Shown here in pieces: positions 10,575 through 63,510 of a stretch of DNA of 64,000 nt (position 1 is the stretch's first letter; every line of letters starts with the position of its first letter). The position numbers and the translations under genes are program-made. The notes beneath the pieces were generated by a model. That model searched no databases. It saw nothing but the letters and a program-made list of their open reading frames with translations, and was not told where the DNA came from. Location: the NCBI GenBank assembly GCA_002682825.1, contig NOKP01000031.1:372001-436000 (forward strand), given 5' to 3'. This stretch comes from Neonectria sp. B-13. Its lineage: Eukaryota; Ascomycota; Sordariomycetes; Hypocreales; Nectriaceae.

Positions 10575-10721
10575 GGCGGCGACGACTGCGGCACTGCGAC
10601 AAGGCGATGTTGGAGAGGCCGTCTGGCTGGAAGGGCTTATCGAAGCGGGGCGGAGAGTCGGCGGGAGACGGACGCGGACGAGGGAAACATGATAGGAGTT
10701 CGAGGGTCGGGTCGGATTGGA

Positions 10722-10785: not shown

Positions 10786-10876
10786 GTAAGATATTCACGA
10801 AGTCGCCGTGTCTGCCATGCCCGCCGAGTCCTGGCGAGTCAAGACAAAATCGGTGGCGGAGGGAGACGCGCCTCGA

Positions 10877-10906
10877 GGGACTGGGACTGGGACTGGGACT
10901 GGGACT
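10877..10906. repeat. Hexanucleotide repeat, five GGGACT copies
   Basis: Five consecutive perfect GGGACT units lie in the 5' region of the coiled-coil gene. A 320-codon minus-strand frame spanning it is low complexity and is not treated as a gene. The array could vary in length between isolates. Confidence 0.85.
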
Positions 10907-39026: not shown

Positions 39027-42000
39027 TTAAGTGACAATACATCCATTACAGTTCTCATCACACCCATCCTCGCCCTGGACCAGAATGTGTGCAGAGCAAC
39101 CAGGACCAATCATGCAGTTCTGAGGCTCGCAGTCACAGTTGTTGGTGCCACGCGGGCTCACGCTGCGAGGAATTGACGTTAGTTAAGATTGCGCGTAAGA
39201 AAGGAGAATGGTGGACTTACTACGCCCGACAGGCATAGATAATCGCCGTGGTTGTAGCGGCCGGCGGCTCTGAGGTTGTATCCGGGATCTGCACTGTTGA
39301 AGAAGGAATGGTTGTCGTTGTGGGCTCCTCGACTGGGGAGGTAGTTGGCGATTCCACCGGTGATGTAGTTGACTCTTCAATGGTAGAGGTAGTTGGCTCT
39401 TGAACGGTAGAGGTAGTTGGCTCTTGAACGGTAGAGGTAGTTGGCTCTTGAACGGTAGAGGTAGTTGGCTCTTCAATGCTCGAGGTAGTTGACTCTTCAA
39501 TGCTTGATGTAGTTGACTCTTCAATGGTAGAAGATTGCCGGGTAGTCGTGAGCAACGTCGTCGGAACGGTCGTGGATGTCTCAGCCCGGCTGCAGTCCGC
39601 CTCGTCAGGGAAGTTACCGTCGCTATCTTGTCGTCTCACAAGTGGACACGACTAAACATCACCGCCCGTGTTAGTCAACATTCCATATCAGCTTCTCGTA
39701 TACACTCGGGCTGACTTACGGGGCTACCAATGCCTGCATCAGCGGGCCTGACGCCGTTGAAGATGGTGTTCAACCCGGGTGCGCGCTCCCATGCCCACTC
39801 TAGCATGAGCTCCTTGACCTTCACAGGGGTGCTGACATCAACGTCCGCAAACGGCTGAAGGTTTCCGAGTCCGATCAGATAAGCGGCCATACCAGCAACG
39901 GCGGCGCCAGCTATGGTTATCTTTGATCAGTTTATATTCGGCGAAAGAAGCAATGAACTCACCTGGCGATGTGCCTGAAGTAGATCGGTAGGTGCTAAAT
40001 TCCGGCTGGAAGTTCGCACATTGAATATCTTCGCCAGGAGCGTACAAGTGCGGCAGGCCCTTGGCAGAATCACGATTAGTTTTCAGGTACATGTTCAATC
40101 CTTGAGGATCAACACCTCCGGCGACAATGATTTCGGGGATGTAGTTGAGACCAGCAGTGGAATCGCCAAAAATGGCGGGGAAGCCATCGATAGAGTTCTG
40201 ATGCATACTTGTCAGTCTCGAATGCTTAGTTGAGAGAATCCACTTACAGCTCCGTTGTTTCCCGTGCCCGTTACGAGAGTCACGCCCTTGGATGCTAGAA
40301 GCCTGAGCATGCCACGCAAGGTGTCACGAGGAGCCTCAAAGCCATCTTCGCCGTTGACGTCCATGAAAACTAATTTTCCATTGCCGGGATTGCGACGCGG
40401 GTAGTACCAGGACATGGAGACGACGGCTCGCTTGTTGCCGCTCCCGATGTCATCGATGATCTTCTGGATTCCCTCGAGGTAGTCTTCTATAGTATTGATT
40501 GATGTTGGTCGCTTGGGCAGTCTGACAATAACTGCGTTTGCGTTCTTGGCAATTCCGTAAATGTGGCCACCCATTCTGCTGAGCATACAGGTGCCGTGGC
40601 CAAACTTGCCGCCGTTGTCGTTGTCTGATGACTCAACAGAAGGTCGAGCGTGAAGATACCTAGCTCGCGAGGCGATGTTACTGCCACCAGTGAATTCCTG
40701 ATGTCCTCTGTTAGTGGGTGATGATTAGTTGGGGGGCGTTAGATGATGTACTCACCGCATTGTTCAGGTTGGCACCCGAATCTACGATGTAGACGTCAAC
40801 ATCTTGACCACCAGATTCGTCGTACACATAATTGCTTTGGTACCACGAGAGTGGCTGGCCCTCAAATTGGGAAACAAGGACCATGTCATCAGAAGAGTCG
40901 GGCTGTTGTACGAGATCCGTCGAAGGGTCAAAGCATGAATCCGAACAGGGCTGGTAAACAGTGGCGACCTGGGAAAGGCGTTAGTGTCTGATGCTCGATT
41001 CGCCAAGAGGATTGGAGTACGTACATTAGCAAATTTGATCAGCTCCTCTGCCTGAGACGTGGTCATTTGCACGGTCCAGAAAAGGACTCCCAAGCTTGAT
41101 GAGTCCGAGGCGACAATGCTGTCTGCGTCGACCATACTGAGCATCTTGGCATAGATAGCAGCATTGGTTACAGAGTTAGAGCCATCGGATGGGTACACAA
41201 CAAACTCGAGGTCCAATTCGCAAGAGTCTCCGTCATCGTCGCCCCCGTCCTGTCGTCGACCGAGGCCTGAACCGCCAGTTGCTGTACAGGCCTTGCTCGT
41301 TGTAGCAGTGGTGCTTGTCTCTTCTTCAGTGGATGTCGGGGCATTGGTGGTGGGATTGTTCGTGTTGTCAGGGTCATCGGGGTCACCGCCGGGAGGAATG
41401 ATAGGAGGGATCGGGGCAGCAAATGGCGGGAATACGAGGCCAGGGCCAGCAAGAGGGAACCAGAGCCAGCCGGCGATACCGATGATGATGGGAAGATCAG
41501 TCGTGGTGGAAGTATCACCGGAAGTGGTATCGATGTGCGTTGTGGTTGTGATCGGGGCAGTAATGGTCGAGTAATTGGGATCCTGAGAGAGAGTGTAGTG
41601 GCCAGTTATGCTGCCAGAGGTGAACTCAGTTTCCGTTGCTATATGGGTTGATGACGCCGGTGCTCCAGTAGTTGGGCCCTGGGATTGAGACCCATCCGTA
41701 GTTGTATCGCCCGAGCCATCGTTGGTAGTAGCGGTAGGGTCGGAGGTCTGCTGAGTGGTGGTATCTCCCTGCCCGTCAGTCGTAGTGGTTTCCTGGTCGG
41801 CGCTTGAGGTCCCAGTCTCGGTGCCAGTTGTAGTTTCGGTGCCAGTAGTCTCAGTACCGGTCGCGGTGCCAGTCTCGGTACCAGTTTCTGTGCCAGTCTC
41901 AGTACCAGTCTCGGTTCCAGTTCCAGCTTCGGTGCCAGTCTCAGTACCAGTCTCGGTGCCAGTGCCAGTCTCAGTACCAGAAGAAGTCTCAGTGCCAGTC

Positions 42001-43118
42001 TCAGTACCGGTGCCAGTCTCGGTGCCAGTCTCGGTGCCAGTCTCAGTACCAGTCTCAGTACCAGTCTCGGTTCCAGTAGTTTCGGTGCCAGTCGCGGTGC
42101 CAGTGGCAGTGTCGGTACCAGTAGTCTCGGTACCAGTTGCAGTCCCGGTTCCAGTAGTCTCAGTACCAGTCTCGGTACCGGTGCCAGTCTCTGTGCCAGT
42201 CTCAGTTCCAGTAGTCTCGGTACCAGTACCAGTCTCGGTGCCAGTGCCAGCTTCGGTACCAGTCTCAGTACCAGTCTCGGTACCAGTACCAGTCTCGGTG
42301 CCAGTGCCAGTCTCAGTACCAGTCTCAGTACCAGAAGAAGTCTCAGTGCCAGTCTCAGTACCGGTGCCAGTCTCGGTGCCAGTACCAGTACCAGTGCCAG
42401 TACCAGTCTCGGTGCCAGAAAGCGTCTCTGTGCCGCCTTGGTCGGTAGAGGCGCCGGAGATAGTCGAAGCTGTTGCAGAGCCCGACTGAGTGTTTGTTGT
42501 TATAGAAGAGTTTCCAGCTCCGGTCGGGGTCTCAGTACCAGTGTGTGTGCCGTGGGAAACGGTGTCGGTGCCGGTTCCAGCTGTATTTGTCCCGGAGTGC
42601 TCCTCAGTGTTTGAGGATTGTCCGGTCTCGGTACCAGTCGTACCAGTGGGCGTACCCGAACCACCATGCTCCGTGCTGGAGGTGTGCTTAGTCTCGGAAC
42701 CAGACTGAGGCGTGTTCGTGTTGGTGGTCTGGTCGGTGCCCGAAGAAAGTGGCGTAGTACCAGAGCCAGGAGTCTCCGAAAGGGTACCAGATCCAGATAA
42801 TTCAGTTTGAGAAGAAGGTCCCGGAAGCCAACTGGTGCCCGTGGTGGTTGTGTTAGAGGCTGTGAGAGATGACTGCACTGAGATCACACTGGTGCGGGCT
42901 GTGGTCGTGTCAGAGCCTGTGAGAGTGTTGGTCCCTGTCAAATCGGTGGTTTGGTCAGTCGTGGTTTCTCCCGGCTCATGGGTGGCTGAGGGGGAGTCCG
43001 TCCCTGTCTCAACTCCAGAGGTCAAGGAGAGAGACGGAGGATGGCACAAATTCAGCTTCTCGGCCTGGACTCCAGAGAGAGCCAGGGCCAAGGCTGCAAT
43101 GGCCGCTTTGGGAAGCAT
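39027..43118 (-). CDS. Very large secreted subtilase (S8) with two repeat regions
   Basis: Seven exons (43118-41025, 40968-40756, 40697-40248, 40197-39963, 39910-39720, 39651-39221, 39162-39027) join in phase to 1249 residues. A signal peptide ([15 protein letters not shown]) precedes about 450 residues of Thr/Ser/Gly/Glu, including long TGTE repeats. A hydrophobic [11 protein letters not shown] segment, a Pro-rich linker and a GRRQ site that could be cut by Kex2 follow. The subtilisin domain has Asp in VYIVDSGAN (about 761), His in GHGTCMLS (about 803), the oxyanion Asn in GTGNNGA and Ser in GTSPAGAAVAG (about 996). A second repeat block ([15 protein letters not shown]) and a Cys-rich end ([14 protein letters not shown]...) close the protein. 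It is probably a cell-wall-bound or secreted, heavily O-glycosylated protease. Confidence 0.88.
39372..39530. repeat. 24-nt in-frame repeat encoding (E/Q)EPTTST-type octapeptides
   Basis: Units like GGTAGAGGTAGTTGGCTCTT with a short variable spacer recur every 24 nt in exon 6 of the subtilase, encoding TTSTVQEP or TTSSIEES on the minus strand. Three central units are nearly identical; flanking units have diverged. Confidence 0.85.
41800..42420. repeat. In-frame minisatellite encoding TGTE repeats
   Basis: About 600 bp built from 6- and 12-nt units (CCAGTCTCGGTG, CCAGTCTCAGTA and variants). On the minus strand this gives (T)[15 protein letters not shown]. Larger blocks are themselves duplicated: a block containing the glutamate-poor SSGTE and EAGTGTE variants occurs twice (around 41930-42050 and 42245-42390). 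The frame is kept throughout. Confidence 0.9.
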
Positions 43119-47672: not shown

Positions 47673-48731
47673 TCAGTCCTTGCCCATAGCTTTCAGAAAC
47701 CCCAGTGACACACTGTCTCGCATACTCTCTTGTAACCACCCTGGGAAGCCACGTAGGAGAGAAACCCATCCTAGACTCTCTGGGATGACTATCTGCGCGC
47801 CATATGCAGAGTAGAGCTGGTTAAGAATTCTGTCAGCCACCTCTTCAGGGGTCACTGTAGGGTCCTGCAGCTTCCCCTGTTCCTTGATCTTTGAGATCAT
47901 CGGTGTTTGCACCCATGTTGGATGCACAACGCTGCGGATTGTTAGTCATGATAGCGATTCTAGACCACAGTTGAGAGGAATTACCTAGTCCGCACCATGG
48001 GCGCTTTGTAAATATGTCTCAGCTCCTGCGCTAGGCCTTCCGAGAATGAGAGAACTGCAGCCTTGGAGCATCCGTAATCGACATTGCTGGCTTGAGTACT
48101 GAAGGAGGCCATGCTTGCTATGTTGACGATGTGACCGTGGTTTCGCTTCACCATGCTTGGAAGAAACTCCTTCACCAACAGGATAGGCGCAATGATGTTC
48201 ACTTGAAAGACCTTCCGGATTTTGGGTTCGGTCAGGTCCAGGAGTGACGTGGCATTTCCAATGCCTGCGTTATTAATAAGGACAGTTGGGTCGCCGTGTT
48301 CTGTCCGAACGCGATCTGAGATAGAGGAGATGGCGGAAGGGTCTGAGAGATCGACTTGGTAAAAAGAAGTTCCCGATGCTAGAAAATAGTAGTTTAGTTC
48401 ATTTGGTGTAACAAGTGACTCGGTATCGCCGAGAATACTCACACAGTGTACCCTGTGGCGCGTTCATGTCCAAGATGATGACATTAACGTTTCTGCGCGC
48501 AAGCTTGGCAACTATCATGGCACCGATACCACTGCTTCCACCGGTGACCACGACAATCTCGCTTTTCCAGTCCCAAGTGTTGTCAGTGAGATAGTTGTTC
48601 ACCTTTCTCCGAGTTAACCACCTGTTCAGCTTGGGTAGCAAGCAAACAGCTAGCAGCGCTGCGGCCCCCGCCTGGACCTTGGGTAACTTGGCAAGTTCTG
48701 CAACTTTTGCCAAAATCTGTTGCTTATCCAT
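47673..48731 (-). CDS. Short-chain dehydrogenase/reductase, membrane-anchored (SDR16C/RDH-like)
   Basis: Three exons (48731-48443, 48378-47985, 47931-47673) give 313 residues. A hydrophobic N-terminal segment (AGAAALLAVCLLP, about 21-33) flanked by basic residues suggests anchoring to ER or lipid droplets. The cofactor motif is TGGSSGIG (63-70). The Asp after the second strand (VIILDMN) favours NAD. NNAG is at about 132, the catalytic Ser in NIASMAS at about 185, and YGCSK gives Tyr198 and Lys202. The VVHPTWVQTPM segment fits the retinol-dehydrogenase-like branch that oxidises hydrophobic alcohols. It is divergent from the hydrolase at 49325. In the proposed pathway it would oxidise an alcohol to the ketone used by the BVMO (inference). 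Confidence 0.93.
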
Positions 48732-49324
48732 TATAAGAAAGAGTAAAGGTGATAGGATTGGTATGAGGGGGTGTATGAGATGTTTCTCGAATTGCTGGCT
48801 GTGAATGACACCACGAGATACTAAATTGGAAATCTCGTAGCGATTATTCACGACTTTATTTGCCATTCATTATATTTGGGAAATGTTACTAAACCTCATC
48901 TCAACGGACCGCGTTTTCGATCGTCACCTTCCGGCACCCAAGTTCACCAGCCTTGGTTGGTTCGGTCGCTTGGCCCGAGGGATCTTTGTTGCCGAGGAGC
49001 ATTAATCCCCGCCAAGCGACGCTAACTTCAAGCGCCAGTAAGAAACGGATAGACCCAACTTATTCGGCGTTAATGTTCTCAGACCTTGCCCCGAGGAATT
49101 CCCGAGGTGAATCAGCAGTACTCCTGGACCTCGTATCTTGTTGCAGTGTAGTGCCTTGGTTGTAAGTTGCTACTTTGCAGCAGCTGGCGTATGTACATAT
49201 CAAGTGTTTAAACCGGACGCCAGAGGATAAATGGCATTGTCCCAGTACTAAATCTGTCGTTTTTTTCTTTCTTTCTCAGTACATACAGCACAATCTCAAT
49301 ATTACGTTCATCAAGTCACCCAAT
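48732..49324. promoter_or_regulatory. Divergent promoter with four CCGAGG elements
   Basis: This 593-bp gap separates the SDR and hydrolase starts. CCGAGG occurs at 48975-48980, 48992-48997, 49091-49096 and 49102-49107, three of them as CCCGAGG (reverse complement CCTCGGG). The same core is repeated in the other cluster promoters. It is a candidate site for the Zn2Cys6 regulator encoded at 55829. Confidence 0.5.
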
Positions 49325-50289
49325 ATGAGTTCTATCAAAGACGTCGACATTTCCACCTATGATGGGTTGAAACTTCGAGGAACGCTATACAGCGTCGGAC
49401 AGCAAAAGCCCTGCATCATCATGTCCAGTGGAGTGAGTGACCACTGAGGAGATTTCTCATATATCTCACTTTATCTTTTGCTGATCTCTGGCTTGTCTCT
49501 TAGTTTTCCGGCCTTCGAGGTCATTTCACGCCCGAGTTTGCTGCGCGGTTCAATGCTGCCGGCTATGGTGTGCTGGCATACGACAATCGGTGCTGGGGAG
49601 ATAGCGAGGGATTACCCCGTGATGAAGTTGACCCTTGGCTGCAGACGCGGGACTATTTTGACGCCTTCAACTATGCTGCCGCTCAGCCCGAGATTGACGG
49701 AGCAAAGATCATCTACTGGGGTTCCAGCATGTCCGGCGGCAACGCCATCTGCGCCGCAGCCATCAATAAGGATCTTGCGGGTGTCATCTTGCAGGTACCT
49801 TTGGTGTCAGGCGAGGCTCTCAGCCGCACTCCAGGGATGTCTAGCATGCTGGTGCTGGATCGTGGCAAGACTGTCGCAGAAGGTTCTCACACCAAGTTGC
49901 CAAACTTCCCGAGCTCCATGGAGGATCTCACGAGTGGCACATCCAAGGCAGTGTTGAAGGACCCAGGGGCCATACCCTTCATGGAGGAGATGCAGCGGCG
50001 CGGATTAGACTGGGCCAAGCTTTGTACGGCTCAGAGCATATTGAATACGGCGCTCCATGAGCCGATTGCGTATATTCATCGCATCTCGCCAACACCGATG
50101 TTGATGGTTGTCTCGGACAGCGACGTTACCACGCACACCCACCTGCAGCTTGAGGCCTTCGAGAAGGCACTGCAACCGAAGAAACTGAAGATTATTAAGG
50201 GAGCGGGGCACTTTGCTCCCTATTTTGGGGAAACCTTTGAGCAGAACATCAAGGCACAGATTGATTTCCTCAAGGAGATTTTAGGGTAG
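49325..50289 (+). CDS. Alpha/beta-hydrolase (S15/dienelactone-hydrolase-like)
   Basis: Two exons (49325-49432, 49504-50289) give 297 residues. The start MSSIKDVDISTYDGLKLRGTLY is the usual first strand pair. GFSGLRG gives the oxyanion loop. The nucleophile elbow is YWGSSMSGG with Ser111. The acid is probably in MVVSDSDVTT and the His in KGAGHFAPYF, so the triad appears complete. YDNRCWGDSEG is a marked family element. There is no signal peptide; it is probably cytosolic. The family hydrolyses esters, lactones or C-C bonds. Beside a BVMO, ester or lactone hydrolysis is the natural guess (inference). Confidence 0.92.
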
Positions 50290-50794
50290 ACAGGCGGCCT
50301 GGTGGGGGTGCTCAGCGAATCTCAGATACAAACAAATTGGAGACTGAGATGATTTACACCATAATTGGAACTGTGACAGTGACATTTTTTAGTTCCATAG
50401 CAGGCTAACTTTGTTGAGGCTGTGAGTGACCGTTAATCCTGTTTTCCATGTACGTGTCATAAAAACTGGGATATATCGCGAGAAACTGGTCATGTAACAA
50501 CGATTCCCCAGCACGTTTTCCATATCCACCGTAAAATAAACTCAATCGTAGCTATGAGAATCTGAAGGAATCGGCACCTTGCGTAATGTGGCTTAATTGA
50601 CTGCTTCCTGTGGTACTGTCGAAGCAAACATTCTCTGGTCCATACAGCTTGCAACGATTGCAATTGATTTCTTGATCTTTGGTCATCCCACACATGCTAC
50701 GTGACACATGTGCTAGTTGAGTAAATAACCGGAAATTTCGGTCAAATAACATTTTCAAGTATGATTTACAAGTGTGCTCCAGAACCCCCGAGAC
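50290..50794. other. Convergent 3' intergenic region
   Basis: About 505 bp between the hydrolase and CoA-ligase stop codons, AT-leaning, with no gene seen. Confidence 0.45.
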
Positions 50795-52836
50795 TTAAAG
50801 ATTGGCTTGCACCTTTCGCCCCTCCTTCTCCAGGTCTTTCAAGACGCGTCTCAATATCTTCCCGCTAGGACTCTTGGGAATTCTCGCGATGAATTCGATG
50901 CCGTGCAGCCATTTATACTTTGCTTTGTGCTCCTCAACGTGCTTGCAGATCGCCACCGCCACCTCTTGATCAGTCTTGAAGCCTGCAGATGAGCTCTTCA
51001 CGATAAACGCCTTCGGCACTTCGCCGGCATATTTTTCGGGTACCGGAATTACGGCGCAGTCGGCAGCGAATGGATGCAGCAGAATGTGAGCTTCAAGCTC
51101 CGCTGGAGCAACTTGATGCCCCTAGGATAGTGTTGATAAATTAGCTTGACTTCTAGCAGCGGGAAGAAAACACTGGGATTACCTTGGTCTTTATGAGCTC
51201 CTTGATACGATCAACCACGACGATGTGCTCATTGCCCTGTGCAGAGCGACGCATTACCACCACGTCGCCTGTCCGGAGCCACCGCCCATCTTCGTCCCAA
51301 ACAATTGTCTCCGCTGTGGCCTTCGCATTGTTCATGTATCCCAGACAGATGCCCGGAGACTGGACGTAAAGTTCACCTGGAGTTTCGAGTTCCGCAACTT
51401 CCTTGCCATCAACGTCAATAAGTTTGCATCGGATTCCTGGGAGGATAGATCCGGACGAGCCAGGTAGAATGTCATGTTCACTGGTTGCGCAGACGCCAGG
51501 ACTACTCTCGGTCAAGCCTATGTCATATTTTGTTAGTTGGACTGTGCTAGAAACGGAAGGAAAGCCTTCGCCTGGCGTACCGTATCCTTGGCCCACCTTC
51601 CAGCTTGGCCACGCCTTGCGGATGTCTTCCACTGTCTCCTCCCCAAGAGGGGCGGCTCCCGATGTGACAATCCGCACGCTGCTCAAGTCATATTCTTGGC
51701 ATTTCGTCCGCTTATCAAGCAATTGGATGATGATGGGGGGGACCTGCACCCGATAATCTGATTAGCATATATTACAATTCTGTGGCGTAACGCTGATCAC
51801 AGTACCAAGCATAGTTGATTGATCTTGAACTTCTGCACTGCGGCAAGCATGTGGTCAAGTTTGTGTTTCGGTAGAACAACGACTTCGTCGCCGCGCCAGG
51901 GCAGTATGTGAGATATGATGCTGAGGCCGTAGATGTGGCTGAAGGGGAGAAGGCCGAGCCCAACTTGCGTGTCGATTCCGGCAAGCTTCCGACCATAGGC
52001 CTCGAATGCGACTCCTGCAGCGACGTTGCTGATGATATTGTAGTGTGAAAGTACTACCCCTTTCTGCGGTTTAAGTTAGCGGGGGGAATCCTGATCTGTA
52101 GCAGTTGCTAAGGCACGAGAAAGGGTTACCGGTAGTCCCGAAGTTCCGCTCGAGAAACAGATGTAGGCGACCTGCCTAGTTCCCTGCCCCTTCACCCACT
52201 GTAGCGGCGGCAGTCGTGGCAGCTCTCCACCCTGCTCAATCAACGCTGATATCGTCGTGAATGGGGATTCGGGAGGATCTCCAGGCATGTCCAAGATGAA
52301 GATGCGGTTCCGAGGGAGTTGTGCCGCGGTGGCTGCTTCCAGTGCTGTTTCAAGAAGAGCCGTACAAGTGAACAGAACACTTGCACTGGTTACACGCAGC
52401 TGATGGGTCAGCTCTGGCGCGCCGTATGCCGCACTAGCCGGAGTAACAATGCCATTTAGGCGATGCACTGCGTATGTCAGGGGGACGTAGTCAATCTCAA
52501 GGCCGTCGAGGTTAGCGGTTGTGATGTCTCGTATCTCATCCCACGTTGTCTTACACTGTTCAGAGAGTAGATGCAGGCCACTTTGTCCCATTCGGACCCG
52601 TCACTGGTGGCCCATCCCGCCCTGTTCTCCAACGCCCGAGCTATGAAGTCAATACGTTGCTGGACCTCAGCTGTGGGATAACTTCGTCCAGTAATGCCGC
52701 AAGTGAAAGGATTTCGAGAGTTTGCCAAAGGTTTTCGACCATATCGCTCGTTGTACATGAACTCCTCAATTGTTACATCATCAGGGATGGTCTGTGGAAG
52801 CAGACTTTGAGCCCAATCATGCGCTGTGAAGACCAT
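50795..52836 (-). CDS. AMP-forming acyl-CoA synthetase, 4-coumarate-CoA-ligase-like
   Basis: Six exons (52836-52555, 52495-52130, 52063-51806, 51743-51581, 51517-51183, 51121-50795) give 576 residues. The AMP-binding motif is YICFSSGTSGLPKGVVLSH, restored across intron 2. GQGYGLTE is restored across intron 4. WLRTGD, VDRIKELIKTKGHQVAPAEL and the C-terminal catalytic lysine in PKSPSGKILRR are all present. The enzyme adenylates a carboxylic acid and transfers it to CoA. The protein ends in Ala-Asn-Leu, a tripeptide that acts as a weak peroxisomal PTS1 in catalases, so peroxisomal location is possible. It is divergent from the BVMO gene, sharing a 544-bp promoter. It would activate the acid released by the cluster hydrolase (inference). 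Confidence 0.94.
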
Positions 52837-53380
52837 TTTTCTGGTATATGCTCCAGAGTATTCAAGAAGAGGGATAATATCAAGGACTGGATAAACTAGA
52901 GTCGAGGTGCGTCAATGATGGTTTACGTTTATTTCTCGGCCTTGTCATTGAGCTTTTGCCTTGGTCCACTAAGCTCGGACAGTGAGAAAAGGCCCCTCAC
53001 CATAGCTTTGTTGCGATCCGATTTGCTACAGATCGTCGCCGATTGCCATGACCCTCGGCTCGGCACTTGCCCTCGGCCCGCACATAGCAACCATGAAACC
53101 AACTTTTATGTAGGATTATCCTGGGGATCTAGGAATATCCATGTCCTTGGAAGCTAATCGTCCGACCGTTGCAGATGTCGTTGCGCTCCCTCGGGCGATA
53201 CCCTCGGGTTCTGCATGCGCAACTGGGTTGCGTATCGTGAAGCAGTCGAGTTTTGGGCTGTATAATACTTGATTTTAAGTTCCAAATATGAGAAAATAGA
53301 TGCCTGACAATTCACTGCGTCTTTGGCATAACCAGAAACCCTTTTCAATTCCAAGCAAAGCGATACGCGACAGACCGAAA
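52837..53380. promoter_or_regulatory. Divergent promoter of CoA ligase and BVMO with shared motifs
   Basis: CCCTCGG occurs at 53052-53058, 53070-53076, 53188-53194 and 53201-53207. TTGCCTTGGTCC at 52956-52967 is followed by TCGGAC at 52975-52980. The same 12-mer and TCGGAC recur in the region before the MFS gene at 58.8 kb. The density and sharing suggest binding by one regulator. Confidence 0.55.
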
Positions 53381-55470
53381 ATGAACGGTACCTCCAGCAA
53401 ATTCACCCTCAAGGATGTTCCGGTTGAGAACCAGCGTCCCCTCAAGGTCGTCATCATCGGCGCTGGGTTTTCTGGTATCTACTCTACTATCAGGTAGTTG
53501 CTTCGTCTATGTCCTAGTCCCCGCAATGCGACAGTCGCTGATGCTGTCTGAACAGGATGACCCAGAGGCTTAAGAACATTGATCTCACCGTCTACGAAAT
53601 GAACGAGGAAACGTCTGGAGTGTGGTATGTCATTGACGATAAAACTACGACGCCAATGGGTCTAACACTTTGAAGGTGGTTGAACCGGTACCCAGGTCTA
53701 GCATGCGACATTCCGTGTGAGTAGGCGCTGGTCCCTGTCCAATGACAAATTAAAGGAAGCTGACACAAATTGGGCATCCACAGCCTACTCTTACCAATTT
53801 AGCTTTGCGCCAAACCCTTACTGGTCTTCTCTTTATGCACCAGGGCCAGAGATTCGGGCTTACATGCAGGAAGTCGCCGAGAGATTTGGCGCAACGCGAT
53901 TCATCAAGACCTCTCACAAAGTGGAGGCAGCCTCCTGGGATGCCGAGAATAAGCAATGGTATGATGAATTTGTCCCTGAATGGCCTTGATATTATATCGT
54001 TGACACCTTGGCACAGGAACATCAAAGTGCTCAACCTGAAGACAGGCGAGACATTCCAAGACACGGCAAACATTCTCGTCTCGGCGCGGGGAGGGCTGAA
54101 TCAGATTTCTTGGCCCGAAATCAAGGGCCTGAAAGACTTTGGTGGAAATCTCATGCATTCTGGAGCATGGGACGAAAGGTGAACAGCGAGATTCCGAAAA
54201 AGAAAAAGACCAAGGACTGAAGAAGAGAATAGCGTTGACCTGCGCAACAAGCGCGTCGGAATTATCGGCAACGGATCGAGCGCCATCCAGATTGTCCCAA
54301 AGCTTCAGTCCCTGGAAGGATTGAAGTTGTCGTGCTTCGCAAGATCTCCAACCTGGATTACGTCCTCGTTCGGCGACAAGGCAATGTCGAGGATGGGAAT
54401 GGACCCTAAAGACACCAAATGTGCGTAATAAGTCATGACCCCCAAAATTATGTCGAGCAGAAGGCTAACCGTACTTGACGCCAGTTTCGCGAAGTCATCA
54501 GGAATACATTGCCCGGAATCCCGAAAAGTATTTCCAGTTCAGGAAGACGCTCGAGTCCGAAGCCGCTGCGCTGTACCCCATCACGCTTCAGGGCACTGAG
54601 GAGCAAGTTGGCGCAACCGCCCTATTCGAAGAGGGGATGCGCCAGCGTCTGAATGGCAGAGAGGACCTGGCGACGGCCATGATCCCCAAGTTTGCTCCTG
54701 GGTGCCGCCGTCTCACGCCTGGGCCTGGATATCTCGAGGCTCTCAAGCAAGAGAACGTGACGTTCATCACCACACCGATCCAGGAAGTGACGCCCAAGGG
54801 CATCAAGCTCACTTCGGGCGAAGAAGTCGAGCTCGACGTTTTGGTCTGCGCCACAGGGTATGACGTTGAGGCGCCTCCCACTTTCGAGGTCACAGGTCGC
54901 AATGGCACAACCCTGGCCGAGAAGTGGAAGCCGTACCACGAGTCATACATATCGGTAGCTGTGGACGAGTTCCCCAATTTCCTACTGGTCGGAGGGCCCA
55001 ACAGCGGCCTGGGATCCGGGAGCCTGGTCAGCGTGTTCGAGGCGCAGGGCGATTACATCGTCAAGGTGATCCGGAAGATGCAGAAGGAGGACTACGCGAC
55101 CATCGAGCCAAAGGCGGAACGGGTGGCCGACTTCAGCCAGTACATTGACGAGTACTTCAAGCGCACCGTATACACGGACGAATGCTCGTCGTGGTACCGG
55201 GCGGGCAAGTCTGGCTCTCGGATTGTGGCTCTGTGGCCGGGCTCTTCGGCGCAGTGTCTCGAGGTGCTGCGTGCGCCGAGATGGGAGGACTTTGTGTTTG
55301 AGAGCGCGGACAATACGGGGAATCACCTGCGGTGGATGGGGAACGGCTGGAGCTTGACCCTCACCGAGGGTGACCCTTCGTGGTTCCTTGACCCCGACGT
55401 GGTGGACGTGCCTGACGAAGGGAAGCCGGAGGAGGGCGAGTTTTACAAGAGGCGCCCGTTTTCGTACTAG
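53381..55470 (+). CDS. Baeyer-Villiger monooxygenase (class B flavoprotein)
   Basis: Seven exons (53381-53493, 53556-53624, 53676-53716, 53784-53958, 54017-54178, 54233-54420, 54485-55470) give 577 residues. Rossmann motifs are VVIIGAGFSGIY for FAD and VGIIGNGSSA for NADPH. Between them FGGNLMHSGAWDE fits the BVMO fingerprint FxGxxxHxxxW(P/D) and separates it from N-hydroxylating or sulfide-oxidising FMOs. RYPGLACDIPS and LVCATGYD are further family marks. The reaction is NADPH- and O2-dependent insertion of oxygen next to a carbonyl, turning ketones into esters or lactones. I chose 53381 because MNGTSSKFTLKDVPVENQRP looks like the family start; an in-frame ATG at 53300 would add 27 residues. 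The substrate is unknown. Confidence 0.94.
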
Positions 55471-55828
55471 AGACGGAGCTTGTAGTTTACCTAGTATCCT
55501 AGGAGAGTGCTTGATCTCGGCTACAGCGCTCATAACTTAGCCGTAAAATTGGAGTAATGAGGCTGGCATTCCGAATTCCGAGATTTTTGCCCTGTGTCGA
55601 GGTTGCGGGGAAGACTTGAACCGGCCTAGTTCCGGCAGCGGGGCCGGCAGCGATGCCGTGCTACCGCAGATAGACTACTAGTCTTCTCTTCCCCGCATGT
55701 CACGAGTAGATGGTTCGGGGTAGAGCTGGACAGGGGATAGTTTAGCTCTCCATCTCCGCTTCCACCGCTTCATCCGCTCCCTAGCGAACTCAAACACTTC
55801 CCATCATCATCAGTTCTCCTTCAGTGCC
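55471..55828. promoter_or_regulatory. Region between BVMO and regulator gene
   Basis: This 358-bp gap is the promoter of the regulator. It contains a CGG/CCG-dense block at about 55619-55668, including CCGG-N7-CCGG at 55621-55635 and two GCCGGCAGC-like copies. Zn2Cys6 proteins bind CGG half-sites, so autoregulation is possible. The CCCTCGG core of the other cluster promoters is not seen here. Confidence 0.4.
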
Positions 55829-58715
55829 ATGGACTTGTTGAGCGAATCAAGCCTCCGAGCTGGCGGGCATCGCAAGCGGTCAATGCAGGCCTGCCTCTCC
55901 TGTAGGACGAGAAAGGTCCGCTGCGACGTGTCTTCTCGTGGCCAGCCATGCACCAACTGTGACCTGGATGCTAAAAACTGTCTCCTGGTCGGCCGAGCTT
56001 CTCGAATGTTGGAACATCCTGAAATCCACTTTGTAGTCTACATCAGCTGACCTTACTCACGTACAGAGGTCAAGACGTCCCGAGACGACGATCGCACCGA
56101 CAAACCAGCGACTGTTCATCTCAACGGAAACAACAAGCACCAACCGACTTAGGCAATGACACTGATGCCGTGGCATCCCAGACAATCCCCCCACTGGCGG
56201 AGTCAAGAGAGACGGCAGATGAGCCAGAACCAATGGACTTCGACAACTTCTGGGAGCTCGAGATGGATATGCCCCAGTCCGGCGACCCTTTTGACAGGAA
56301 CGGCCTAGCAGCTGCAGACCAAGATTTCATACTGCCCGAATGCTTTGAAACTATCGGCGGGACGCGTACGACAGGTATCGTCATTATCCCTTTTTGTCTT
56401 GACTGGTACCATCTGACTCGCATATCGGATAGAAACAACCTCCCAAGAAGGAATGCCACGCATGGGTAATGAACAGCACTCAAGAAGTGATTCAGGATCT
56501 GTTCATCAGAAAAAGCGTCCGAGGAATGGCAGCACTACAGTCCTCTACTCTCACTACCGGTATCTCAGTATCGGTAATCTCCACAACATCCCTCATCAAG
56601 ACGTCAGCTATCTGGAGGCCCAAGGATGTCTCCATGTTCCAACTCGACCTGTTCTTGACAACTTTGTCGAACAGTACTTTACTCACTCCCATGTCTTCCT
56701 CCCATTGCTAAATGAGGGCGACTTTTGGGACATGTATTCTCAACGAGATAACGCGGCTTCGGATGACAAGATATCCCTACTGGTCTTTCACGCCATGTTA
56801 TTTGCTAGCTGCAATGTGAGCTGACTCGGAAATCCCACCCTCGCAATACTGGTTTCTACGAGAAGGCTTACAAGGGCCTAGTTTGTCCCCCTCGAAATCA
56901 TCCAGACGCTAGGTTTCTCTAGCATCCGATCCGCGAGAGCCGAATACTATAGGAGAACAAAGGTGCGAAATCAACAACATACCTAGCTGTATAACTAGAG
57001 TCAGTGCTGACAAGAACCCCATCTCCTTTAACAGTTGTTGTTCGATCTAGAAACAGAGACAACATCCCTTCCGCTGGCACAATCTGCCCTGTTGTTGATG
57101 GGCTGGGTACCGCCTTCAAACGCGACCCTCACCCCACATAAGACATGGCTAGGTCGCGCTATTCAACACGCGAGAAGCTCCAACGCAGATCGTCATGCAG
57201 AGACCCTCGAATTGCCAATTTCAGCTACTCCAGCTGAGAGGAAGCATCACAATGCCCTTCGCCGACTGTGGTGGTGCTGTGTCATCTTGGATCGCATCTC
57301 GCCCCTCTGCACCCGATTCAGTCTCCAAATCACGCATGATCGTTTCGATTTCAAGTACAGCGCCAGGCTAGGTATGGCAGATCTCCAGGACGAGATATAT
57401 CGTTCAAGCGTCTTTACTCCAGCAACAAAGCGACGTCTGATTGCTCTGTTCTCTAAATTTCTCGAATTTGCTATTATACTGACTGATGTGCTGACCCTGA
57501 CATTCCCTTTCGAGGATTCCGTCAAGTCCCCTCGGGAATCACTAGAAGATGGAGATATTGATGTCACAAAGTGCGACGCTTCGCTGAAAAACTGGTACGC
57601 ACGAGCCGCAGCCGAATTTCCTCCCTGCGAAGACGAGTACCATAACCTGCCTGGTAAGAAGCAGGAGGGGGCAAAGTCTACGGTACTATATACGAATCTT
57701 GTGTATATTTACTACCAGTGAGTCGATTGAGCCTAGTTGGGTCACATTCACCCCTTTTGTAGTCGGCTCTAACCGTAGAAAAGCACCGCTCTCATCGCAC
57801 TTTGCCATTACAAGATTCTCCGCCAATCGGTCGCCTCAACTCAGACGACCACGGAGATGGGGGAAGTCGGGCAGTCCAACAAGCTCGATGCAAGTCGCTG
57901 TGAACTACAAGACTCCATGGGGAGAGTGACAAAGTGCTTTGAGTTGCTGACCCGGTGTCGGCTTGCCCGTTGGCTGCCAATATCAGCGTGAGTGCACAAC
58001 GCCTCAGAGAAATACTACAACACCGAGCTGACGAATTACATGGGACAGAGTTGCCTGCATTGCCACGCCTTTAGCCTTGCATGTCATTTCCGCTAGACTG
58101 TCTTCTCTCAGCAGGGAGTTGGCCTTTGACCCCCCGACCAGCGGATCTGATGCAACTTCAGCCTCGAGCCAGCACCGACTGGATATTTTGGCTGAGACAA
58201 TGACGGCGTTTGTACCGCAGTACGACGGTGTAGAATGGATCAAGAAAACCGCAAGACACGTTGCCAACCTGGCGCAAATCGATCGCCTGTCTTTATCTCA
58301 GCCTGGCCAGACATCTGTAACGGATTGGAGCCAGATCCTGACGAGTCAACCGAACACGTACCTAAAAATGACCTGGACAATCGACTTGTGTATCAGCAAG
58401 GGAAGATTGCCTGAGAAACACGACTTTCCTGGGTGGCTGCTCGGCCAGTTGACCTCGTCCAAGAATCCGAACTCTACCTTGCTTCAGCAGCAAGATCGAT
58501 TTCACTCCATGACAGAACTAAATGCACGTGGCGGGTCTATGAACTGCGATATCGAACAGATTTTGGGCCTCGTCCCTCAAATGACCGACTTCAGGCCTTC
58601 CGGGCGACTATTGGTAGACCAGGAAGATGATGATTTCGGTAACGACTGGCCCCATGGTGACGACATTGGCAGGACGGGATGGAACTTGTTCGGGGCTTTG
58701 CAAGAGCAGCAGTAA
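55829..58715 (+). CDS. Zn2Cys6 fungal-specific transcription factor, likely cluster regulator
   Basis: Seven exons (55829-56007, 56067-56374, 56433-56815, 56882-56962, 57035-57717, 57784-57987, 58049-58715) give 834 residues. The zinc cluster is near the N-terminus, with Cys 22, 25, 32, 41, 44 and 51 and RTRKVRC. The regulatory domain begins FVEQYFTHSHVFLPLLNEGDF, with RRLWWCCVILDRISPLC in the middle. The acceptor of exon 6 was chosen so that YIYYHTALIALC, a family-typical helix, is continuous. The first intron has a weak donor (GTTGGA), so the link between DNA-binding and middle regions is less sure. Position between the BVMO and the transporter suggests it controls the cluster. Confidence 0.88.
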
Positions 58716-59259
58716 GACTAAGATGAATAAATAAGCCAATTACTTGACGAATTCCCACAGGCGAGGAAAGGCGTTCCCTAGATTAGTATCTCGGACTACC
58801 CGTTGCCTTGGTCCGATACCTCGGCCCCACAAGCCACCATAGAAAACGCAGATCGTCGTGAAAGGCTAAAGCTCATTAGCTTGGGAATTCGGCCGCTAAC
58901 GAGCCTCCCTCGGCAAGGGGGACCCATATTGCCGCGGTGAGGCTTGTCACCTTATCTAGGGGACGTCACACGGAGACAGGTTCTGAGGATAGGTCTATGG
59001 CAACCATGCATCTCTACCCCGCGGGGACAGTCGCTGTGAAGGGATCCGGACCTAATGCACCCCGGATTACTAGGTCTTGACTCTGACAAATCGCGGCGCG
59101 ACACTCTACACATCTACCTACATCACAAAGTGCGTATATATATTCGACTCTGTGCCTCGTAATTAAAGTTGGAACCTCCATCGAGCCCCATGCTCCTTGT
59201 CTCAGTCAGATAGTTACTTGATATAATCGTTGCCAACTTGTCCTAGCCATCCACGAGTC
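58716..59259. promoter_or_regulatory. MFS promoter with inverted repeat and shared motifs
   Basis: TCGGAC (58791-58796) and GTCCGA (58811-58816) form an inverted repeat with a 14-bp spacer. TTGCCTTGGTCC at 58803-58814 is identical to the element at 52956. CCTCGG occurs at 58819-58824 and CCCTCGG at 58907-58913. These are candidate sites for the adjacent Zn2Cys6 regulator. Confidence 0.55.
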
Positions 59260-61535
59260 ATGGAGCAACAGCCGACGCACCACGCGTGAGTGTACCAGGT
59301 CGCGCAGTATCTGGCTTAGTATAACCCCGTGTTTCTAACTTAATCAAAGGTCTGATAGCAATGCTAGCACTGCAGTCCCAGGGACTGTGGATATGAGCAT
59401 TGTTGGTAAGTTTGATCCCTCTAAATATTGGGAACAATTACTTTCATTAACACGACGGCCTGCATAGACGGGCAGGAGACTGCATACGGACTGGCCTTGT
59501 ACCCTATTCCATCCAAAGATCCTAATGATCCCCTTATAGTGCGTCCCCCCCTGTTATTCATGCTAACCAACTGTGCTAACTGAATCGTCATTCCACAGTG
59601 GCCGAAGCGGAAAAAGTTCACCGTCTTGTTTCTCGTTTCTATCTACTCGTTCCTAGCAAATGGTGCACTGTTCGGAGCGAGTGTGTATGTCAATTACCTT
59701 GCGGAACTGTTTCAAAAGACGCCTAACGAAACGTCTCATCTCGTCACATATCCAAATCTGCTTTTTGGTTTCGGTGAGATACCCCTGGTGCATCATCTGA
59801 GTTAGGAACAGTATAGTTGCTAACATCTATTCCTAGGTTCTCTCATCTTTGTGCCGATGTATCACAAGATTGGACGCCGACCAGTCATGCTCATATCTAT
59901 TGTTCTGGTAAGCAGCTTCCCCTCACAGAGCTATACTTCAAGTTCGCGTGCTGACGACCATATCCTCCTAGTACTGCGCCGGGCTCCTTGGATGCGCTCT
60001 ATCCAACTCCTACAACGTACTTCTTGGCTTCCGAATGCTCCACGCGTTTGCTTCCTCGGTCTGCGAGGCACTCCCAGCACAGGCCGTGGCGGACATTTTC
60101 TTTCTCCACGAACGCGGTAAAGCACTTGGCTGGTATACTTGTAGGTGTTATCATCAACGCTTCAGTTTCTTCGAGTGGGAACCATGCATCGAGAAATTAA
60201 CTGACCTCTTGAACAGTTGCTCTAACCACTGGTACCCTGAGCGCTGTTCCTGCTAGTTACATGCTGTCTAGCGGCAAGTCCTACAACCTCTTCTTCTGGG
60301 TCGAGTTTGCCTGCGGATGTCTCTTGTTCCTTGGCACATTCTTCTGCTTCGAGGAGACCATGTACCTTGGAAGGGTGAAGGCTCTAGGCGCTAGACCTGT
60401 GGATGAACATGTCGTCAGCTATGAAAAGGACGACGAGCAAAGCGTTCGGCAAATCGAGAGCCGGGCAAGACAGACCGATTCAGAAGTGCCCACACGAAAG
60501 ACATACCGACAACAGCTCAAGGTTTTCGATAAGACTGACCCCGAATCTCCAATCTTTCTCATGATGGTAATATCAACCTGTTCCTGTGTTTTTCCCAGAC
60601 AGCGAGGATTATTCTGTTATGGTGACTAATGTATAATCTCTTTCAGGCCCGATCGTTCACGTACTTCATCGTTCCCCCAGTCTTCTGGGTTTGTTCAACT
60701 TATGGTATGTGCAAAATCGCAAATGAGAAAAGCGTTGTCGCTCAATGGGTAATTTAGGCATGATCATCGGCCTCGGAGCTCTTGCTTTCACGTCAACCTT
60801 TCCAGTCATCGTCGCTTCGCCACCATACTCCTGGCCAATTGTAAGAACGTCTGAATGATCAATTTGACGAAAGCTGTGTCGACTTAAGGAAAGGTTCAGC
60901 CCAACTAACGCTTAATGTGCAGGAAAACACAGGCCTCGTCTCCGTCGCTGCCTTTCTTGGCTACCTTCTTGCTATGGGCCTGTTCGGTACGCTTCCCGAC
61001 CGATTTGCGGCAAGATTGACCAGGAGAAACAAAAACATTCACGAAGCGGAGCACCGCCTCTGGTGCCTTGTCATAGTTTTCTTGATATCTCCTGCATCAC
61101 TCATTTTGTATGGATACTGCGCCGAGAAGCACCTGCATTGGGTTGGCCTCGTCTTCGCCGTTGGCATCTTCCAGTTTGGTAAGTTCGATAGTCCTTCTTT
61201 GATGACCGAGTCTAACCATCCTCTGTTGTAAACCAGGTTCTTTCTTCTACTTGACTTACACGCTTGCCTACGCTATGGACTCATACGAGGCAAATATTCC
61301 AGAGATGTTAATCGCCATGAACGTTGGGAAGCAGGCTATCTCGTTCGGATTCGGATTCGAGGTCATTAACTGGATCACGGAGAACGGATATATTACCATG
61401 TTTGCAGGCATTTTCTGTGGCGTCTTAGTAGCCAATAACCTGGTCGTGTTTATCTTCCTAGCCTTTGGTAAGACTATGAGGAGGTTTTTCGGACAAACCC
61501 GACTTGGAAAGATGCATAAGAATAGTATTACTTAA
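59260..61535 (+). CDS. MFS transporter (DHA1-like, 12 TM)
   Basis: Eleven exons (59260-59285, 59350-59405, 59468-59538, 59599-59773, 59837-59907, 59972-60140, 60217-60566, 60647-60704, 60758-60840, 60923-61178, 61237-61535) give 537 residues. A soluble N-terminus ending WPKRKKFT leads into the first span. The loop 2-3 signature is MYHKIGRRPVMLIS, corresponding to GxxxDrxGRR. A charged central loop (about 70 residues, KDDEQSVRQIESRARQTDSE) splits two six-helix halves. WPKRKK before span 1 and the PxxWxxxF-like start resemble fungal drug/polyamine-type DHA1 carriers. It would exchange a small molecule with protons at the plasma membrane. Uptake or export of the cluster compound cannot be told apart. 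Confidence 0.92.
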
Positions 61536-62644
61536 AGTAGTTCTATAGATTGACGTCTTTAACAAACCTTTCTCAGATTTGTCAAGGTTAAATCAGCCTA
61601 TTTCCGCATTATACTAGTTATTTCGACCTTGCAGCTCTCGAAAGTTAGATTCTACTATATGTTTAATTCAAACTAAACTTCTCTCTTTCTCTTCTAATTT
61701 CATTTTCAGGTTGCATGCCAGCTTTTCTGATATTTATCCTCAATCTGTACATGCACTTTCGCGTTGAGGGAGGAGTAGGATTGTCCTAGAGCAGATGGAC
61801 ATGGAGAAGCAACCTGTTCAGGTATCCTTCGCCGTGTTATTCTCTCCGTCCAGGGAGTTACCCTCGGAGCCAGATTCACCTCCACTGTCCCCGATAACAA
61901 TGCTACCACGTCCCAAAGCAGGACGGTTTCAGCAGGCCCTGTAATCTCAACTAGTTTTCTGCCTAAATAATCACATCAGCTTTGATAACGTGGAATTCCG
62001 ACTTCGAAAATGGCACGCTGAGTTCGCTTCAGGCCTAAAGTATGGCCATCCCCTTTCGCACACGCCAAAGAAAGAAAGCGCCCACCTGATTCCGTAGAAG
62101 GTTAACTAAACTACTCTGTCAGCCGCTTGCATGCCATAAAAAGGTGGTGTGAGGTGCCAAGCCTTGAAGACGATTACGAAGGAGCCCCATAGCGCCATGA
62201 TCCTGACGCGCGAACCGGGGTTGAAGCTTTCGCCGGTTTGCTTGGCTGCGATATGCCACTTTTCTAAGCTTCGGCCACCGATTGGCTAGTCTCAATTTAA
62301 ACGGGTTCTATGTCAGCCGGTTGCGTCTATGCCCACTTAGCACGTACGGCTAAGCCTGGGCTCTGGAGTTGACTAGGACTTTTTCTCTCCAAGGCTCGCT
62401 CGCACACGTCATAGTGCAGTTTACTCGGCTTCCTACGATTGCATGGCGTGATCTTCAGCGACTAGGATGTAAGGTTATAAGGCCTTGGGAACACTGGCAG
62501 CGTAAACTGCCCTCCCTATCTTCGTGGGAGCTTTCACACACTGACACTTCGAGACACACCGCGCAGCCAGTGTTTTGCTTCTCTTGACTTTCTAAAATTT
62601 ATCACACATCCGTTTTACCAAAGTCTTTATTCCGGCTCCTGGAA
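61536..62644. other. Intergenic region between MFS and epimerase-like gene
   Basis: 1.1 kb without a supported gene. The left part is AT-rich. One CCCTCGG lies at 61861-61867. A short frame at 62369-62587 has no motif. The last ~200 bp are the epimerase-like gene's promoter. Confidence 0.45.
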
Positions 62645-63510
62645 ATGACACCTCTTCGGGTTCTTTTGTTTGGCGGCAATGCCTCGATCTCTCGCCTAAT
62701 GACACCAATGATGCTTGAACGTTCTTGGGACGTCATCAGTGTGGTAAGAGATGCACGACAGAGAGACAGAATCCTCCGATTAGGAGACGGCAAAAAAGGC
62801 AAGGTGGACGTCATAGTGTACGATCTGGAAGGGATGCAGAGCGTTTCTGACGCCCAAGCCATCATCGAACGTGCGAAGCCCAACACAATCGTTTTCGCCG
62901 CAGGTACGAATACCACAAGTCAAGAATTGCACCCTGCTTGTCGTACATGCTTGGCTGAATCTTTTTCATAGGCTCCATGTCCAATCCATTCGGTGTGGAT
63001 CGAGATGCTGCCAGGTACATCATGAAGGCATCCGCAGCCGACTCCGATATCATCAAGTTCCTCTTCATCTCATTCCCCTCATCGCGCAGAAACAGAGCAC
63101 CGTGGTGGTCGGAAAGCGCTTATCGCGACTGGTTGACCGAGAAATCCTCTTATGGAGATATCTACCAGGCGAAGCTTGAGGCCGACGAGTACCTTGTCGC
63201 CCAAGCCAACGCCCGAGTGAGCCAAGGAGGCCCAGGTTTCCAAGCAATCAGCCTCAGGCCTACTTGGTTGACAAATTCAAAAGGAACTGGTCGGGTACAG
63301 CTCGGCAAGGGTGGTTGTGTGGGACAAGTCACTCGGGACGATGTCGCTCGTGTCGCCGTGAGTCTCCTGTCCAGACATGATACCAAAGGATGGTTCGATT
63401 TGTTTCAAGGCGATGTCAAAATTGAAGATGCGGTAGAGATAGTCGTTAAAGACGGAACCAATTGCATTGAAGGAGAGGACATCCGCAGCATGGACCAGTT
63501 GGCGGATTAG
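62645..63510 (+). CDS. NAD(P)-binding epimerase/reductase-like protein
   Basis: Two exons (62645-62903, 62972-63510) give 265 residues. The N-terminus LRVLLFGGNASISRLMTPMML is a degenerate Rossmann start (GGNASIS instead of GxxGxxG), followed by VVRDARQRDRI, the usual position for NADP phosphate-binding arginines. A YGDIYQAKLEADEYL segment carries the Tyr-x3-Lys-like pattern (Tyr, Ala-Lys). SLRPTWLTNSKGTGRV and ISRDDVA-like TRDDVARVAVSLL are typical of NAD(P)H-binding atypical SDRs (HIM1/YwnB-like). The function is unknown. It may reduce or isomerise a cluster intermediate, or be a bystander. Confidence 0.88.

What the first reader, a model, noticed from the sequence alone, without database searches (positions are those of the whole stretch)
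47673..63510. Candidate catabolic cluster: SDR, BVMO, hydrolase, CoA ligase, regulator, MFS and epimerase-like genes
Seen: seven neighbouring intact genes with full catalytic motifs and no PKS, NRPS or terpene synthase in view. Known: in bacterial cyclic-alcohol degradation, a dehydrogenase makes a ketone, a BVMO makes a lactone, a hydrolase opens it and the acid is oxidised further. Inference: the same logic is encoded here as a fungal cluster, with a CoA ligase feeding beta-oxidation, a dedicated Zn2Cys6 regulator and a carrier. The membrane-anchored SDR points to a hydrophobic substrate such as a terpenoid, steroid-like or alicyclic alcohol. I know of no described fungal cluster with exactly this set.
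Basis: partly seen in the sequence, partly recalled or inferred. Interest (0 to 1): 0.8.

Follow-up and report, generated by a model that had tools for sequence, protein, structure and literature searches.

The report
Conserved fungal ketone-degradation gene cluster
Seven neighbouring fungal genes look like a shared pathway that turns an oily alcohol or ketone into fuel for the cell's fat-burning compartment, and a core of them recurs together in related fungi, though what it eats is unknown.

Summary
SDR, alpha/beta-hydrolase, AMP-forming CoA ligase and type I BVMO form a core that recurs side by side in other fungi: consecutive locus tags in Neonectria punicea, and at least two cluster members within 5 tags in 11 genomes (9 species). 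N. ditissima keeps SDR, HYD, LIG, then MFS and the epimerase-like gene in order (its BVMO and regulator were not in my hit lists). No PKS, NRPS or terpene-synthase match was found on the 825-kb contig. New here: (1) the two divergent promoters each hold four CCTCGG/CCGAGG boxes, the published target of Ctf1/Far fatty-acid and cutin regulators; no other hexamer occurs three or more times in both. (2) Most CoA-ligase relatives end in PTS1-like peroxisome signals, though the window's ends ANL. Best reading: a hydrophobic secondary alcohol or ketone is oxidised, turned into an ester or lactone, hydrolysed, and the acid sent to peroxisomal beta-oxidation. Gene trees group Fusarium solani copies with Neonectria (and Clonostachys where sampled), not F. 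oxysporum: transfer, or duplication and loss. Substrate, expression and the regulator's target are untested. The carrier looks efflux-type; the epimerase-like gene is peripheral. Ten literature searches found no such cluster described.

The parts
47673..48731 (-). SDR gene, 3 exons (48443-48731, 47985-48378, 47673-47931), 313 aa; 17-beta-HSD11-like with a modestly hydrophobic N-terminal segment
48732..49324 (.). Divergent SDR/HYD promoter with four CCGAGG boxes (48975, 48992, 49091, 49102)
49325..50289 (+). Alpha/beta-hydrolase gene (HYD), 2 exons, 297 aa; DcsB/GrgF-like; Ser111-Asp243-His272 triad inferred from conservation
   Evidence: 65, 75 and 81 on the N. punicea orthologue
50795..52836 (-). 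AMP-forming CoA ligase gene (LIG), 576 aa; exons 52555-52836, 52130-52495, 51806-52063, 51581-51743, 51183-51517, 50795-51121; ends ANL
   Evidence: intron 51518-51580 placed by hand
52837..53380 (.). Divergent LIG/BVMO promoter with four CCTCGG boxes (53053, 53071, 53189, 53202)
53381..55470 (+). Type I BVMO gene, 7 exons, 577 aa
55829..58715 (+). Zn2Cys6/Fungal_trans regulator gene (REG), 7 exons, about 823 aa; 56816-57034 is the least sure part of the model
59260..61535 (+). MFS transporter gene, 11 exons, 534 aa, DHA1-like; two CCTCGG boxes upstream (58819, 58908)
   Evidence: (65 on the F. solani orthologue)
62645..63510 (+). NAD(P)-binding (PF13460) epimerase-like gene, 2 exons, 265 aa; peripheral member; one CCTCGG box upstream (61862)

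Best explanation
This is a conserved catabolic cluster. Proposed route (order inferred, not shown): the SDR oxidises a hydrophobic secondary alcohol to a ketone; the type I BVMO inserts oxygen to give an ester or lactone; the DcsB-like hydrolase cleaves it; the CoA ligase, probably in peroxisomes, activates the acid for beta-oxidation. A Zn2Cys6 regulator sits in the locus, the two divergent promoters carry arrays of Ctf1/Far-type CCTCGG boxes, and a DHA1-type transporter probably exports toxic substrate or intermediates. Shown: gene structures, families, catalytic motifs, linkage of core genes in other fungi, box arrays, PTS1-like ends of most ligase relatives. Inferred: reaction order, peroxisomal site, Far/Ctf-type control. 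Unknown: the substrate.
For: Families and motifs. Linkage by locus tags: N. punicea QQX98_004686 SDR, 004687 HYD, 004688 LIG, 004689 BVMO; N. ditissima AK830_g2009 SDR, g2008 HYD, g2007 LIG, g2005 an MFS fused in one gene model to the epimerase-like protein (79% identical over 273 columns; domains); F. nematophilum ACJ41O_007459-007461; eight further Fusarium genomes. A 586-aa F. anthophilum model fuses an SDR to a Hydrolase_4 domain. Boxes: 11 in 3148 bp of promoter against a shuffle mean of 1.6 and maximum of 7 in 500; no other hexamer is found three or more times in both divergent promoters; four tandem box pairs in the span where the genome rate predicts 0.087; the only two places with four boxes in 160 bp in 215,011 bp scanned. 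Ctf1alpha/beta and FarA/FarB bind CCTCGG and control cutinase and fatty-acid genes (PMC5068947, passages). PTS1-like ends: 17 of 19 ligase relatives by a relaxed rule that I set after seeing the ends, 8 of 19 by the strict rule. No PKS, NRPS or terpene-synthase match on the contig.
Against: No expression, enzyme or growth data. The window's own ligase ends ANL, not a canonical PTS1. The transporter looks like an exporter, which fits detoxification as well as growth. The regulator was not shown to be a Ctf1/Far orthologue ('cutinase transcription factor 1 beta' is only a name on two relatives), and its own promoter has no box. I noticed the box by eye before counting. Tandem box pairs are not enriched genome-wide (335 against 343 for the reversed control). 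The cutinase and acyl-CoA-oxidase comparison was inconclusive. N. ditissima BVMO and regulator, and N. punicea regulator and transporter, were not in the top-120 lists.
Confidence: 0.6

Rival explanations
1. Detoxification of an antifungal plant terpenoid or phenolic ketone: the same enzymes disarm a toxin and the DHA1 transporter pumps it out; carbon gain is secondary.
For: The transporter's nearest solved relative is Quinidine resistance protein 2 (E 2.3e-9), and its F. solani orthologue matches the 2_A_01_02 drug-resistance model, below that model's cut-off. G. clavigera BVMOs are implicated in limonene detoxification (PMC8120277, passages). Patchy gene trees fit a dispensable xenobiotic cluster.
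Against: A CoA ligase with PTS1-like relatives and Far/Ctf-type boxes point to acyl-CoA metabolism. Simple detoxification would not need a CoA ligase (inference).
Confidence: 0.22
2. Tailoring genes of a secondary metabolite whose backbone is made elsewhere. The hydrolase would act as a trans-acting thioesterase like DcsB.
For: Nearest solved relatives of HYD are DcsB and GrgF; fungal BVMOs occur in biosynthesis, e.g. MoxY (PMC6315744, search listing).
Against: None of 56 ketoacyl-synthase, 78 condensation-domain or 3 terpene-synthase matches is on the 825-kb contig. The N. punicea HYD also matches the UilS lactonase model (E 4.8e-38, but 131.5 bits against a cut-off of 400).
Confidence: 0.1
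3. Only SDR-HYD-LIG-BVMO are functionally linked; the regulator, transporter and epimerase-like gene are chance neighbours. (Compatible with the catabolic route for the core.)
For: The epimerase-like gene is elsewhere in N. punicea (QQX98_009723); boxes are densest in the two core promoters; N. punicea regulator and transporter were not in the top list.
Against: REG and BVMO are 5 tags apart in the FOXG, FOYG and FGADI sets; MFS and BVMO are 2 tags apart in F. solani NW759; MFS and the epimerase-like gene adjoin in N. ditissima.
Confidence: 0.3

Closest known systems
Bacterial cyclic-alcohol/ketone degradation (dehydrogenase, BVMO, lactone hydrolase; pathway recalled)
   Same: Same enzyme logic; type I BVMO; steroid, phenylacetone and cyclohexanone monooxygenases are the nearest solved relatives
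   Different: Fungal, with CoA ligase, Zn2Cys6 regulator and Far/Ctf-type boxes in the locus; alicyclic substrate untested
Pseudomonas camphor pathway
   Same: Dehydrogenase, Baeyer-Villiger step, lactone opening, then CoA activation (PMC4097962, passages)
   Different: P450 entry step, spontaneous lactone opening and a second monooxygenase on the CoA ester; no P450 match near here (nearest on the contig about 163 kb from the cluster, 92 of 295 candidates scored)
Aspergillus terreus ATEG_10004 BVMO, ATEG_10005 aryl-CoA ligase, ATEG_10008 SDR
   Same: BVMO, CoA ligase and SDR close together and salicylate-upregulated (PMC7842363, passages)
   Different: Sits beside a 3-hydroxyanthranilate cluster; orthology with the present genes not tested
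Grosmannia clavigera BVMOs CMQ_7007 and CMQ_6956
   Same: Fungal BVMOs tied to use or detoxification of plant monoterpenes; listed as peroxisomal (PMC8120277, passages)
   Different: The BVMO here ends RPFSY, without a PTS1; sequences not compared; the primary paper is not held
Ctf1/Far regulon
   Same: CCTCGG boxes upstream of fatty-acid and cutin genes (PMC5068947, PMC4117967, passages)
   Different: No Baeyer-Villiger gene is mentioned in PMC4117967 (0 hits for 'baeyer'); binding here not shown

Membership tests
Type I Baeyer-Villiger monooxygenase | FxGxxxHxxxW[DP] fingerprint and two Rossmann motifs | tested here: met
   FGGNLMHSGAWD; GAGFSG and GNGSSA read in the translation; F or Y form in 49 of 51 homologues
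Type I Baeyer-Villiger monooxygenase | second fingerprint [AG]GxWxxxx[FY]P[GM]xxxD (recalled) | tested here: inconclusive
   window has it only with S in the first place; strict in 16 of 51 homologues, relaxed in 44 of 51
Type I Baeyer-Villiger monooxygenase | ketone-to-ester activity | not testable with these tools
   needs enzyme assay
Fungal catabolic gene cluster | linkage conserved across species | tested here: met
   11 genomes of 9 species with at least two members within 5 locus tags; F. decemcellulare tags are not linked
Fungal catabolic gene cluster | co-induction by a substrate | not testable with these tools
   no expression data; 0 papers for six gene tags
Ctf1/Far-regulated gene set | CCTCGG/CCGAGG upstream | tested here: met
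   four boxes in each divergent promoter; none before REG
Ctf1/Far-regulated gene set | REG is a Ctf1/Far orthologue | tested here: inconclusive
   names only; three own-genome paralogues have 60-67% identity in the zinc-cluster region; no reference Ctf1/Far sequence compared
Peroxisomal acyl-CoA ligase | C-terminal PTS1 | tested here: inconclusive
   window ends ANL; of 19 relatives 8 fit the strict and 17 the relaxed rule
UilS acyl-homoserine lactonase | NCBIfam curated cut-off | tested here: not met
   N. punicea orthologue 131.5 bits against 400
Secondary-metabolite cluster | backbone synthase in or near the cluster | tested here: not met
   no PKS, NRPS or terpene-synthase match on the contig (other backbone classes not searched)

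The most novel reading that the evidence does not exclude
A dedicated fungal pathway for mid-chain secondary alcohols and ketones of plant cuticular wax (or subterminally oxidised alkanes), wired into the Ctf1/Far cutin and fatty-acid response: the SDR makes the long-chain ketone, the BVMO the ester, the hydrolase frees acid and alcohol, and the ligase loads the acid for beta-oxidation. The cluster has moved between hypocrealean families.
Probability: 0.17. Interest if true: 0.72.

Novelty: new variant of a known kind. Interest (0 to 1): 0.48.

Why it matters
Only a few BVMOs have known physiological substrates (PMC4498894, passages). A conserved four-gene core with a shared promoter code gives a concrete, testable pathway, may tie a BVMO to the cutin and fatty-acid regulon, and has orthologues in tractable fungi. 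If the substrate is plant wax or a defence terpenoid, it bears on how plant-associated fungi use or disarm plant surface chemistry.

Tried and rejected
A second copy of the cluster in this genome: not found; the best paralogues of HYD (45%, 41%), SDR (38-47%) and BVMO (contig C72, 48-60% piece by piece) lie on other contigs. Gene-tag literature search: 0 papers. Literature searches for a fungal SDR-BVMO-CoA-ligase cluster gave only the parallels listed. DcsB/GrgF literature: one irrelevant paper. Comparison of the box in one acyl-CoA-oxidase locus and ten cutinase loci (of 2 and 14 fetched; mirror copies and overlapping pieces left out): inconclusive, since positions were printed without promoter models and the oxidase match is its C-terminal domain. 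Three boxes within 160 bp also occur at one cutinase locus (L050) and one HYD-paralogue locus (L018). Similarity between the two divergent promoters: nothing beyond a 10-bp match. An SDR cofactor-motif regex was mis-specified and returned nothing; I do not use it. Species identity: not settled; protein neighbours point to Nectriaceae, nearest Neonectria. HYD fold: the model of the N. punicea orthologue (mean pLDDT 79.1) matches GrgF and DcsB; it does not decide between esterase, lactonase and thioesterase.
Full report
The window is contig C52, 372001-436000, of an unnamed 60.9-Mb genome. I modelled the seven genes with a splice-aware script, corrected one MFS exon and an extra ligase intron (located), and got seven full-length proteins: SDR 313 aa, hydrolase 297, ligase 576, BVMO 577, regulator about 823, MFS 534, NAD(P)-binding protein 265. 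Introns are 51-90 bp and all GT-AG. The coordinates are right.

What the enzymes look like. The BVMO is closest among solved structures to steroid monooxygenase (E 6.1e-57) and phenylacetone monooxygenase; it has the main BVMO fingerprint and a relaxed form of the second. The SDR is closest to 17-beta-hydroxysteroid dehydrogenase XI (E 3.8e-30). The ligase is closest to plant 4-coumarate:CoA ligases and luciferases. The hydrolase is closest to DcsB (7d78) and GrgF, and a model of its N. punicea orthologue (mean pLDDT 79.1) has GrgF and DcsB among its top three structures, with a Chloroflexus hydrolase. That orthologue also matches the UilS lactonase model, well below the model's cut-off; UilS is an acyl-homoserine lactonase (PMC11633161, title and abstract start in the listing). 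These are class assignments; none fixes the substrate.

Conservation. The protein searches list relatives with locus tags, which I used as a position proxy. Eleven genomes (9 species; three are F. oxysporum strains) had two or more members within 5 tags: N. punicea (SDR, HYD, LIG, BVMO consecutive), N. ditissima (SDR, HYD, LIG at g2009-g2007, MFS fused to the epimerase-like protein at g2005; only g2006 lies between, and its BVMO and REG were not listed), F. nematophilum (BVMO, LIG, HYD consecutive), F. solani NW759 (BVMO 005912, MFS 005914), FOYG (REG 09389, SDR 09391, BVMO 09394), FOXG (REG 02960, BVMO 02965), BFJ63 (HYD 9066, BVMO 9068), FVEG (SDR 01814, BVMO 01817), FGADI (BVMO 8310, LIG 8311, REG 8315), LB503 (LIG 009874, BVMO 009875) and ACKAV7 (BVMO 009438, SDR 009441). 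Outside Hypocreales (placement recalled), hits whose longest contig has the same length suggest the same link in Coniochaeta ligniaria and Pleurostoma richardsiae (SDR, LIG, BVMO) and Cephalotrichum gorgonifer (SDR, HYD). Against this: the N. punicea epimerase-like protein is elsewhere (009723); F. decemcellulare tags (NM208_g4218, g7904, g2202, g7686) are not linked; the F. gaditjirri SDR and HYD in the lists are distant paralogues elsewhere; Stachybotrys elegans has its SDR and MFS on one contig and its BVMO on another; the F. solani MRS44 ligase in the list is a paralogue from another clade. Only the top 120 hits per search were listed, and searches used chimeric queries, so absence from a list means little. 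Full-length identities of the N. punicea SDR, HYD, LIG and BVMO to the window are 93, 88, 88 and 91%.

Promoters. Counting the published Ctf1/Far box CCTCGG/CCGAGG gave 4 in the SDR/HYD divergent promoter, 4 in the LIG/BVMO divergent promoter, 2 before MFS, 1 before the epimerase-like gene, and none before REG, in the 3'-3' gap between HYD and LIG, or left of the SDR: 11 in 3148 bp of promoter against a shuffle mean of 1.6 and a maximum of 7 in 500. Ranked against all hexamers by the window's own frequencies it came second, after AGTTTA; but it is the only hexamer found at least three times in both divergent promoters. Tandem pairs 4-14 bp apart occur 335 times in the genome, no more than the reversed control at 343, so 0.087 are expected in the finding's span and four are seen (Poisson 2e-6). 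In 215,011 bp scanned (the window and 35 loci; 16 overlapping or mirror-copy loci left out), only these two promoters had four boxes within 160 bp. I noticed the motif by eye before counting, so the comparisons with all hexamers are the fairest of these tests. Ctf1alpha/beta of F. solani and FarA/FarB of Aspergillus nidulans bind this site (PMC5068947, passages), and it is used as a FarA-site marker for beta-oxidation and suberin-response genes (PMC10512302 and PMC4117967, passages). Whether REG or a global Far factor binds here is unknown.

Peroxisome link. Of 19 ligase relatives taken from the hit list, 8 end in a strict PTS1 and 17 in a relaxed one that also allows PKL, VKL, PKI, PRL, SSL and SNL; I set the relaxed rule after seeing the ends. 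The window's copy ends ANL. BVMO relatives end mostly in RPFS[HY] or close variants, without a PTS1.

Evolution. On chosen subsets of the hits (22 HYD, 26 SDR, 30 BVMO and 21 LIG relatives), the SDR, HYD and BVMO trees put F. solani-complex copies with the window and Neonectria (and Clonostachys rosea in the SDR and HYD trees, where it was sampled) rather than with F. oxysporum (SDR 7-row clade 100/99; HYD 5-row clade 99/96; BVMO 5-row clade 98/96). In the ligase tree an F. oxysporum f. sp. vasinfectum copy and F. mundagurra join the window and Neonectria, apart from other Fusarium (100/99). Clonostachys belongs to Bionectriaceae, Neonectria and Fusarium to Nectriaceae. Horizontal transfer, or old duplication with loss, are both possible.

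Context. The P450 matches seen on C52 are about 163 kb left and 322 kb right of the cluster (92 of 295 candidates scored). To the right are a phosphorylase-family gene, an NPHP3_N-ankyrin gene, an FAD oxidoreductase, an SLAC1-type transporter and a class III aminotransferase.

Judgement. The specific alicyclic, steroid or terpenoid claim is one of several open options. I found no paper describing this gene set in ten searches of an open-access library; most subscription papers are not in it.

Noticed in passing
G000 contigs C1, C20, C34, C36, C38, C41, C47, C50, C54, C55, C57, C69, C72, C74, C105: Many hits come in mirror-image pairs with identical scores on opposite strands of one contig, as if large inverted duplications or assembly fold-backs inflate the 60.9-Mb genome. 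C52, which holds the window, shows no such pairs in these searches.
   Followed up: no
window 40782-43118: ORF of 778 aa dominated by Thr/Gly/Glu-rich repeats (12-bp units), looking like a cell-wall protein.
   Followed up: no
L009 501-4260 (C52:436501-440260): Phosphorylase-superfamily ORF followed by an NPHP3_N plus ankyrin-repeat ORF, an NLR-like arrangement, next to the cluster's right edge.
   Followed up: partly
window 36652-38271: Intact tannase/feruloyl esterase ORF about 9 kb left of the SDR.
   Followed up: no
window 1-12000: G+C of 0.57-0.64 against roughly 0.50 in most of the rest of the window.
   Followed up: no
P0199 (Fusarium tjaetaba) and L011 1507-3410: One public gene model joins a cluster-type SDR to a tyrosinase domain; tyrosinase-like ORFs (judged by eye, no family scan) also lie about 22-24 kb right of this cluster.
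   Followed up: no
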